Made by a program: the position numbers and the translations under genes
The notes under the pieces: model-generated
Databases searched by the model: none
What the model saw: the letters and a program-made list of their open reading frames with translations, nothing else
Told to the model about the DNA's origin: nothing
Shown: positions 28,787-29,775 of the stretch, in pieces
Position numbering within the stretch: the first letter of the stretch is position 1
Layout of the letters: each line of letters starts with the position of its first letter
Assembly: GCF_000765475.1 (NCBI RefSeq)
Contig: NZ_JRHO01000014.1
Location: 155,574-219,573, forward strand
DNA: 64,000 nt
Source: Methanococcoides methylutens
GTDB taxonomy: Archaea; Halobacteriota; Methanosarcinia; Methanosarcinales; Methanosarcinaceae
Direction: 5' to 3'

Positions 28787-28990
28787 AGAACTGCTGAGAA
28801 TGAAATAGTGAAATAATATGACTTAGTTGCTTTATGGTGTGATTTCCGACTTGTATCATTTTCTTGAAGCAACTGCTCCGCCGTCGAAGTTAATGTAAGC
28901 ACTTGATACCAGAAATTGATATTGCGATTCGGAATATGCCCTTATTTCAAACACTAATATATTCCTCTTCGATTACCCCGGATGAAAAGG

Positions 28991-28998
28991 TTTATATG
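28991..28998 (+). promoter_or_regulatory. TATA box of candidate small RNA 1
   Basis: TTTATATG is centred about 27 nt before the expected 5' end at roughly 29021. Confidence 0.5.
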
Positions 28999-29020
28999 TT
29001 TTTGTAATGTTTAGTCGGTT

Positions 29021-29102
29021 CAGCGAGTTCTTTAAGGGCTATACCCCCACCCCCCACAACTAACTTTTTTGCCCTTTTAGAACTCATTTTAACATCTTTT
29101 TT
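29021..29102 (+). ncRNA. Candidate small hairpin RNA 1
   Basis: Arms GAGTTCTTTAAGGGC (29025-29039) and GCCCTTTTAGAACTC (29071-29085) pair as 7 bp, a 2-nt U-U mismatch, then 6 bp, closing a C-rich loop that holds a T6 run. A T6 run at 29097-29102 could end the transcript. It shares its promoter geometry and its first 12 paired bases with candidate RNA 2 about 175 nt downstream. No open reading frame is evident. Function unknown. Confidence 0.5.
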
Positions 29103-29168
29103 CTTCATAATTTTGTGCCCTTATTCCAATCATTAACATATCAAATGTTATTTTTTTAAATGCTAAAA

Positions 29169-29176
29169 TATAAATA
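29169..29176 (+). promoter_or_regulatory. TATA box of candidate small RNA 2
   Basis: TATAAATA preceded by an A-rich BRE-like AAAA, centred about 25 nt before the expected 5' end at about 29198. Confidence 0.55.
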
Positions 29177-29197
29177 AACATACATACATTGATATTG

Positions 29198-29282
29198 CAG
29201 AGTTCTTTAAGAAACATTCCTCTTAATATACCACGCCTGGTGTACTATTCTTAAAGAGCTCGGTGGTAGTATCCTGTTTTTT
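29198..29282 (+). ncRNA. Candidate small hairpin RNA 2
   Basis: GAGTTCTTTAAGAA (29200-29213) pairs with TTCTTAAAGAGCTC (29248-29261) over 14 bp with one U-G wobble. Inside is a second stem, TATACCA/TGGTGTA around a CGCC loop (29227-29244). A single-stranded GGTGGTAGTATCC tail precedes a T6 run at 29277-29282. TATA box, stem start and terminator are correctly spaced for an independent RNA of about 85 nt. It repeats the GAGTTCTTTAAG of candidate RNA 1. Confidence 0.6.
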
Positions 29283-29412
29283 GTGACCGTTCTGATCAAG
29301 ACGTAACCATGCTACCAGTATGCTCGAAATTCATGGAGTGCTCAACCATAAAAGGCATATACCGCGATCAATGATAACTATTAAAGAATAAATAATGAAA
29401 GGAGTGAAATTT

Positions 29413-29775
29413 TTGAATTTTGGAGAATTAGTCAAAGGAAAGGACATTGAAGCAGAAAGCGCAATGAAGGAGAAACATGTACCTACGATCGAGATCCTTG
29501 AAGGTCATGGAGGAACAGATGCAGACCTTGTTCGAGTAATCGTAGGTAAAGAGACCGCACATCCAAACACCGTTGAACATCACATTGCATGGGTAGAGCT
29601 TTATGGCAAGAAAGATGGCGGCGAAGTCGTTAACCTCGGAAGAGTCAACTTCAGCCCGGGAAACACAAAACCTGACTGCTGGTTCAAGCTTGAGAACATT
29701 GGTGAATACAAGGGGTTCTGTGCTCTTGGGTATTGTAACATCCACGGCCTGTGGGAAAACTGTGTTGAGGTATGA
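29413..29775 (+). CDS. Superoxide reductase (desulfoferrodoxin, neelaredoxin type)
   Basis: Reduces superoxide to peroxide at a mononuclear iron. The 120-residue protein has all expected ligands: KEKHVP (His22), HPNTVEHH (His50, His56) and CNIHGLW (Cys108, His111). It lacks the N-terminal rubredoxin-like iron centre of two-iron desulfoferrodoxins. I place the start at TTG 29413, 8 nt after GGAG; the in-frame ATG at 29395 has no Shine-Dalgarno, and the GGAG would lie inside its coding sequence. Rubrerythrin at the right edge would remove the peroxide. Confidence 0.93.
   Translation: MNFGELVKGKDIEAESAMKEKHVPTIEILEGHGGTDADLVRVIVGKETAHPNTVEHHIAWVELYGKKDGGEVVNLGRVNFSPGNTKPDCWFKLENIGEYKGFCALGYCNIHGLWENCVEV

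What the first reader, a model, noticed from the sequence alone, without database searches (positions are those of the whole stretch)
28985..29285. Two tandem, related small hairpin RNA genes, each with its own TATA box and T-run
In a 600-bp gap without reading frames, two hairpins start with the same GAGTTCTTTAAG, lie about 175 nt apart, and each sits about 25-30 nt after a TATA box. The 3' arms have diverged in step with the 5' arms (GGGC/GCCC in the first, AAGAA/TTCTT in the second), which is compensatory change within one window. This looks like a duplicated family of small RNAs, possibly undescribed, just upstream of superoxide reductase.
Basis: seen in the sequence. Interest (0 to 1): 0.7.

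Follow-up and report, generated by a model that had tools for sequence, protein, structure and literature searches.

The report
Virus-derived tandem small RNA genes
Two neighbouring hairpin small-RNA genes in a Methanococcoides archaeon turn out to be leftovers of a virus's DNA-packaging region that the host lineage has kept, and one of them carries in its loop the signature of a much more widespread, apparently uncatalogued methanogen small RNA.

Summary
The window is Methanococcoides. H1 (29025-29085) and H2 (29200-29261) start 175 nt apart, each about 33 nt after a TATA box. A covariance model finds the family in 10 of 11 Methanococcoides genomes and nowhere convincing outside the genus; Rfam has no match. 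At the superoxide-reductase locus of six species, H2 (stem, loop, tail to T-run) is 88-100% identical, between spacers of 66% and 43%. G-U versus A-C counts (14:3) favour + strand RNA.

First, the 600-bp gap is a decayed viral terS-terL junction: a terL remnant precedes H1 and a weak terS remnant follows H2. In a related provirus the same pair sits between intact terS and terL, on the opposite strand; the related viruses inspected lack it. Second, H1's loop (UACCCCCACCCCCC) matches the invariant loop of another hairpin RNA (model R2), found in 175/186 Methanosarcinales genomes, in none sampled outside class Methanosarcinia, and not in Rfam.

Best explanation: virus-derived, host-retained sRNAs. 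H2 probably blocks ribosome-binding sites through UUCCUCUU; H1 probably mimics the R2 RNA. RNA genes and viral origin are well supported; targets are inferred and no transcript has been shown.

The parts
28853..28954 (-). Decayed N-terminal remnant of a viral terminase large subunit gene (terL residues 1-34)
   Evidence: tblastn 53% identity, E 0.003; 32.3 bits versus at most 20.8 in 200 shuffles; same position and strand in other copies, e.g. G004 E 3.8e-7, G009 2.5e-26
28961..28972 (-). Remnant of the terL Shine-Dalgarno leader (reads TCGAAGAGGAAT on the minus strand), conserved among copies
   Evidence: sequence shows directly; compared
28991..28998 (+). TATA box of H1 (TTTATATG), starts 34 nt before the stem
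29025..29085 (+). H1 hairpin RNA gene; arms 29025-29039 and 29071-29085, single-stranded C-rich loop between
   Evidence: fold z -6.5; covariance model R1 69.3 bits (model trained on this copy)
29042..29056 (+). C-rich loop motif UACCCCCACCCCCCA shared with the class-wide R2 RNA
   Evidence: R2 match in the window (12.5 bits, E 0.92, weak alone); four of the five R2 hits in 303 kb of loci are H1 loops
29097..29102 (+). T-run after H1, possible end of transcript
   Evidence: sequence; function inferred
29124..29139 (+). TTCCAATCATTAACAT: duplicated antisense copy of the terL start region upstream of H2; possible promoter element
   Evidence: origin inferred
29167..29174 (+). TATA box of H2 (AATATAAA), starts 33 nt before the stem
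   Evidence: TATA block 91% identical in six species
29200..29261 (+). H2 hairpin RNA gene; arms 29200-29213 and 29248-29261
   Evidence: arms 100% and 98% identical in six species; fold z -3.4; R1 67.6 bits
29216..29224 (+). Anti-Shine-Dalgarno-like segment ATTCCTCTT in the H2 loop
   Evidence: pairs preferentially with start regions; complement AAGAGGAAT in terL leaders
29262..29282 (+). H2 tail GGTGGTAGTATCCTG and T-run, likely 3' end
   Evidence: conserved in six species, 88%
29305..29346 (-). Short remnant of the viral terminase small subunit gene (terS residues 110-123)
   Evidence: 64% over 14 residues, E 4.8 alone; rests on matching position in other copies
29413..29775 (+). Superoxide reductase (desulfoferrodoxin) gene with its own promoter; neighbour, probably not part of the system
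   Evidence: PF01880; promoter conserved also in G006, which lacks H2

Best explanation
H1 and H2 are two adjacent small-RNA genes of about 80-85 nt, each read on the + strand from its own TATA promoter and ended at a U-run. Shown by comparative sequence: they descend from a cassette that lies between the terminase genes terS and terL of a tailed virus or provirus of Methanococcoides, on the strand opposite to those genes; at this locus the viral genes have decayed while the RNA genes, H2 above all, stayed conserved. Inferred: they act in trans by base pairing from exposed loops. H2 would use AUUCCUCUU to cover Shine-Dalgarno sequences such as AAGAGGAAU (the viral terL leader is one candidate, host leaders are others) and so repress translation. 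H1 would present the same C-rich loop as a class-wide host RNA (model R2) and act on, or compete for, the partner of that RNA. In the virus this would tune late genes or host expression; in the chromosome the copies would act as domesticated regulators or as interference against relatives of the virus.
For: Conserved block with sharp edges from the first base of the stem to the T-run at the sor locus of six species; TATA at fixed spacing in 21/25 copies; two compensated stem pairs; G-U:A-C 14:3; family in 10/11 genomes of the genus. Provirus copy between terL and terS; terL and terS remnants beside most other copies, the window's terL remnant above all shuffles; no such spacer in the related viruses inspected. 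H2 loop favours start regions (p 0.003, 2/60 shuffled loops). H1 loop matches the R2 loop, 13/13 nt in one copy; R2 is class-wide.
Against: No transcript shown. H1, H3 and R2 loops show no preference for start regions. H2 pairs with about 8% of host start regions as well as with terL, and the G005 provirus's own terL leader pairs poorly with its H2 (-7.9 kcal/mol). The H1-R2 resemblance could be convergence of C-rich loops. The window's terS remnant is not significant alone.
Confidence: 0.5

Rival explanations
1. The hairpins are a DNA element of the virus, such as a packaging (cos/pac) or terminase-binding site near terS, and the chromosomal copies are fossils of it.
For: The provirus copy lies between terS and terL, where packaging sites often lie (general knowledge); copies recur with the same flanks.
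Against: TATA at fixed spacing, strand-biased G-U pairs, conservation of loop, tail and T-run long after the virus decayed, absence from the related viruses inspected.
Confidence: 0.12
2. The hairpins work as leader, attenuator or terminator elements of neighbouring genes (cis-acting), not as free RNAs.
For: H2 lies just upstream of sor in six species; hairpin followed by a T-run.
Against: sor keeps its own promoter between H2 and the gene, also in G006 without H2; an insertion separates H2 from sor in G004; other copies lie beside unrelated genes.
Confidence: 0.12
3. Cis-antisense RNAs in the manner of P22 sar: in the virus they pair along their length with the terS-terL mRNA that runs over them; the chromosomal copies supply the same RNAs in trans against incoming virus.
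For: In the G005 provirus the pair is encoded opposite to terS and terL in their spacer; chromosomal copies would be complementary to a virus with a similar cassette.
Against: The inferred H1 start lies beyond the terL Shine-Dalgarno, so the RNA does not cover it; the loops diverge between copies; H2 is conserved where no terS-terL mRNA exists.
Confidence: 0.2
4. The repeats are a small mobile element (MITE-like) whose inverted repeats form hairpins.
For: Inverted-repeat arms, several copies per genome, tandem units.
Against: Most copies keep the same terL/terS context instead of independent insertion sites; promoters, loops and tail are conserved.
Confidence: 0.05

Closest known systems
Methanosarcina mazei trans-acting sRNAs sRNA154 and sRNA41 (as reviewed in PMC5867862)
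   Same: Intergenic archaeal RNAs of the same order; loop of sRNA154 contains anti-RBS sequence and sRNA41 masks ribosome-binding sites, as proposed for H2.
   Different: Those are chromosomal and experimentally shown; their sequences could not be read here, so homology was not tested. H1/H2 are genus-restricted, tandem and virus-derived.
P22 sar antisense RNA (from general knowledge)
   Same: Small phage RNA encoded opposite to the spacer between two cistrons.
   Different: Here the inferred transcript does not cover the RBS of the downstream cistron, there are two or three tandem genes with varying loops, and host copies persist without the virus.
R2 hairpin RNA of Methanosarcinia (found here, not in Rfam)
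   Same: TATA about 30-33 nt upstream, a simple stem, loop motif UACCCCCAC(U/C)CCCC as in H1.
   Different: Different stem (ATGAGCGGG/CCCGCTCAT), class-wide, chromosomal; H1 is genus-restricted and virus-linked. Common descent not shown.
Cold-induced conserved sRNAs of Methanolobus psychrophilus R15 with an upstream 'cold box' (PMC5378194)
   Same: Several conserved intergenic sRNAs per genome in a close relative; could include R2-type RNAs.
   Different: Their sequences are in a supplement that was not readable; identity untested.

Membership tests
Independent archaeal small RNA gene | Own promoter at fixed distance | tested here: met
   TATA-like box at -38..-30 in 21/25 copies
Independent archaeal small RNA gene | Conserved RNA structure with compensatory change | tested here: met
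   Two stem pairs changed on both sides in 16 cells, 0/500 shuffles as high for cells; number of pairs alone not unusual
Independent archaeal small RNA gene | No protein coding | tested here: met
   No ORF of 50 aa or more on + strand across the hairpins; loops and stems, not codons, are conserved
Independent archaeal small RNA gene | Detected transcript | not testable with these tools
   No expression data available
Any Rfam family | Match to a curated covariance model | tested here: not met
   No match at gathering scores; only sub-threshold chance hits
Anti-RBS trans-acting sRNA (sRNA154/sRNA41 type) | Loop preferentially complementary to ribosome-binding sites | tested here: inconclusive
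   Met for H2 (p 0.003, 2/60 shuffles), not for H1 or H3
Anti-RBS trans-acting sRNA (sRNA154/sRNA41 type) | Sequence homology to the known sRNAs | not tested
   The sRNA154 paper is not held
Cis-antisense RNA of the P22 sar type | Encoded opposite to the spacer of two cistrons | tested here: met
   G005 provirus, between terL and terS
Cis-antisense RNA of the P22 sar type | Transcript covers the RBS of the downstream cistron | tested here: not met
   Inferred H1 start lies downstream of the antisense of the terL SD (TATA -34, SD antisense about -62); start inferred, not mapped
R2 RNA family of Methanosarcinia | R2 stem ATGAGCGGG/CCCGCTCAT | tested here: not met
   Only the loop of H1 aligns, model positions 29-43 of 53
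R2 RNA family of Methanosarcinia | Loop motif ACCCCCACUCCCC | tested here: inconclusive
   One mismatch in the window copy, exact 13/13 in one H1 copy; C-rich convergence possible

The most novel reading that the evidence does not exclude
A tailed archaeal virus carries, inside its terminase operon, a cassette of small RNAs, one of which mimics the loop of a class-wide methanogen RNA, and Methanococcoides hosts have domesticated the cassette after losing the virus: RNA mimicry and RNA domestication between an archaeal virus and its host.
Probability: 0.3. Interest if true: 0.8.

Novelty: new variant of a known kind. Interest (0 to 1): 0.62.

Why it matters
Few archaeal sRNAs have a known origin or target. 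Here is a small, well-bounded family whose birthplace (a viral terS-terL junction) and retention can be read from the sequence, and it leads to a second RNA with matches in nearly all Methanosarcinales genomes searched that Rfam does not hold. Both are testable in culturable methanogens and would show whether archaeal viruses imitate host small RNAs.

Tried and rejected
Sponge idea: G-rich complements of the H1 loop looked like the loop of a G-rich RNA, but the conserved TATA and T-run show that locus is read on the C-rich strand, so H1 resembles it and does not pair with it. terL as a unique H2 target: terL leaders pair well, but so do about 8% of host start regions. A near-perfect mRNA target for H1: in the own genome the only complements with at most one mismatch are H1 itself and the two R2 copies. 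The TTYCAATCATTRAYAT element as a regulon motif: the other genomic hits looked like chance on reading, and the element is antisense of the terL start. Viral contigs with the cassette: no pattern match; the terL relatives inspected have no spacer hairpin of this kind. The H2 loop elsewhere: similar stretches in G002 and G004 are copies of one repeated sequence without the hairpin. Cold-box sRNA list and sRNA154/sRNA41 sequences: not readable.

Full report
OBSERVATION. The window belongs to a Methanococcoides genome: named records holding the same hairpins are M. vulcani, M. alaskense, M. seepicolus and Methanococcoides MAGs. H1 and H2 are present as described. Their folding energies exceed dinucleotide shuffles (z -6.5 and -3.4). 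GAGTTCTTTAAG occurs four times in the 2.5-Mb genome, all on the + strand of their contigs, as two pairs: this one and a second on contig C9 (a C-rich H1-like copy at 417804 and a decayed partner at 417968).

FAMILY. Copies in ten genomes fall into three loop classes: H1 (C-rich loop), H2 (AUUCCUCUUAAUAUACCACGCC) and H3 (GCCAAUUCAUGCUCCACUUCC). They share the outer stem; the inner stem differs (GGG/CCC, GAA/TTC, GGAC/GTCC). Two stem positions change on both sides in 16 sequence cells (shuffled mean 7.4, 0/500). Departures from Watson-Crick pairing include G-U 14 times and A-C 3 times on the + strand, which favours + strand RNA. Covariance model R1 finds the family in 10 of 11 Methanococcoides genomes with E down to 4e-19 and gives only weak hits in other genera; the best of those (G035, E 7.5e-5) was read and not followed further. 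One congener, G006, has none. R1 was trained on these copies, so its scores for them are by construction.

GENE ANATOMY. In 25 copies the best TATA-like box starts at -38 to -30 from the stem in 21 cases, median -33. At the sor locus of six species the arms of H2 are 100% and 98% identical, the loop 91%, the tail up to the T-run 88%, the TATA block 91%; the spacer between TATA and hairpin is 66% and the spacer towards sor 43%. This is the profile expected of a free-standing RNA gene of about 85 nt. sor has its own promoter, kept also in G006.

VIRAL ORIGIN. In G005 an H1-H2 pair sits between a terminase large subunit gene (PF03237, PF17289, phrog_979) and a terminase small subunit gene (phrog_2538), opposite to both. 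Searching these two proteins against the other loci shows a terL N-terminal remnant just before H1 in G001, G002, G003, G004, G008, G009 and the window, and terS remnants beside the last hairpin, clearest in G009 (76% over 74 residues). In the window the terL remnant (VFEIRAYSESQYQFLVSSAYINFDGGA) scores 32.3 bits against at most 20.8 in 200 shuffles; the terS remnant is weak alone and rests on position. The conserved TTYCAATCATTGACAT upstream of the hairpins is the antisense of the terL start, which explains the roughly 175-nt unit: each duplication would have taken a piece of the terL start, a TATA box and a hairpin (inference). Related proviruses in G108 and G150 and the viral contigs inspected have terS abutting terL or other genes there, without these hairpins, and in Methanoculleus virus Blf4 a small gene ends 19 nt before terL, so the cassette looks like an insertion. 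No phage record resembles the cassette DNA convincingly. The order of events, virus to host and not the reverse, is inferred from terL/terS pieces flanking the hairpins at several independent loci.

A WIDER RNA FAMILY. The complement of the H1 loop led to another hairpin (ATGAGCGGG..UACCCCCACUCCCCA..CCCGCTCAT) with a TATA box about 30-33 nt upstream and a T-run downstream, next to cofD and tandem in this genome. A 17-nt loop pattern (up to one mismatch) is in 68 of 112 family genomes, with no reversed-control match. Model R2 finds it in 175 of 186 Methanosarcinales genomes, 117 of 118 good ones, with 1-15 copies. In a phylum-wide sample every match listed lies in the own class. Two stem pairs show compensatory changes. 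Rfam has no match. In 303 kb of loci, four of R2's five hits were H1 loops, one exact over 13 nt. E-values of these single loop hits are weak and C-rich convergence cannot be excluded, so mimicry is a hypothesis.

MECHANISM. H2 exposes AUUCCUCUU. Its pairing with 81 start regions is stronger than with internal coding segments (difference -1.02 kcal/mol, p 0.003, 2 of 60 shuffled loops as strong), comparable to the 16S anti-SD; H1, H3 and R2 show no such preference. Most terL leaders carry the complement AAGAGGAA(U) (about -12 kcal/mol), but so do some host leaders. I therefore propose translational repression by H2 with unknown main targets, and for H1 an action through the partner of R2. Archaeal precedents for RBS masking are sRNA154 and sRNA41 (PMC5867862).

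VERDICT. Observation confirmed. Reading as a duplicated RNA family supported; origin and context revised. RNA genes likely (about 0.85), viral origin likely (about 0.85), proposed mechanisms tentative (about 0.35-0.4).

Noticed in passing
G000:C14:628761-628813 and 628956-629008 (L368), 985978-986035 (L367); model R2: A second hairpin RNA family, loop ACCCCCACUCCCC, with matches in 175/186 Methanosarcinales genomes and 1-15 copies each; not in Rfam.
   Followed up: partly
L063 (G009:C153), minus strand 1322-1724: A triple array H1-H3-H3' of the same RNA family, next to a large terS remnant.
   Followed up: partly
G000:C9:417804-417980 (L002, L069): Second tandem pair in the own genome, C-rich H1-like copy plus a decayed partner, upstream of a fasciclin-domain gene; no clear terL/terS remnant.
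   Followed up: partly
L121 (G005:C5:87000-103000): Apparently intact provirus with terL, terS, portal-like and primase/helicase genes; its own terL leader pairs poorly with its own H2 but well with those of other copies.
   Followed up: no
L347 (G005:C5:104544): The CCCCCACTCCCCAAC motif lies inside a sequence with a tRNA-like T arm near the provirus; possible tRNA with intron or attachment site.
   Followed up: no
window 29262-29276 and 29228-29236: The H2 tail GGUGGUA can pair with UACCAC of the loop, an alternative to the inner hairpin; possible structural switch.
   Followed up: no
L147 (G009:C135:7210-7311): Superoxide reductase appears broken in G009: only the last 34 residues match, with a stop.
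   Followed up: no
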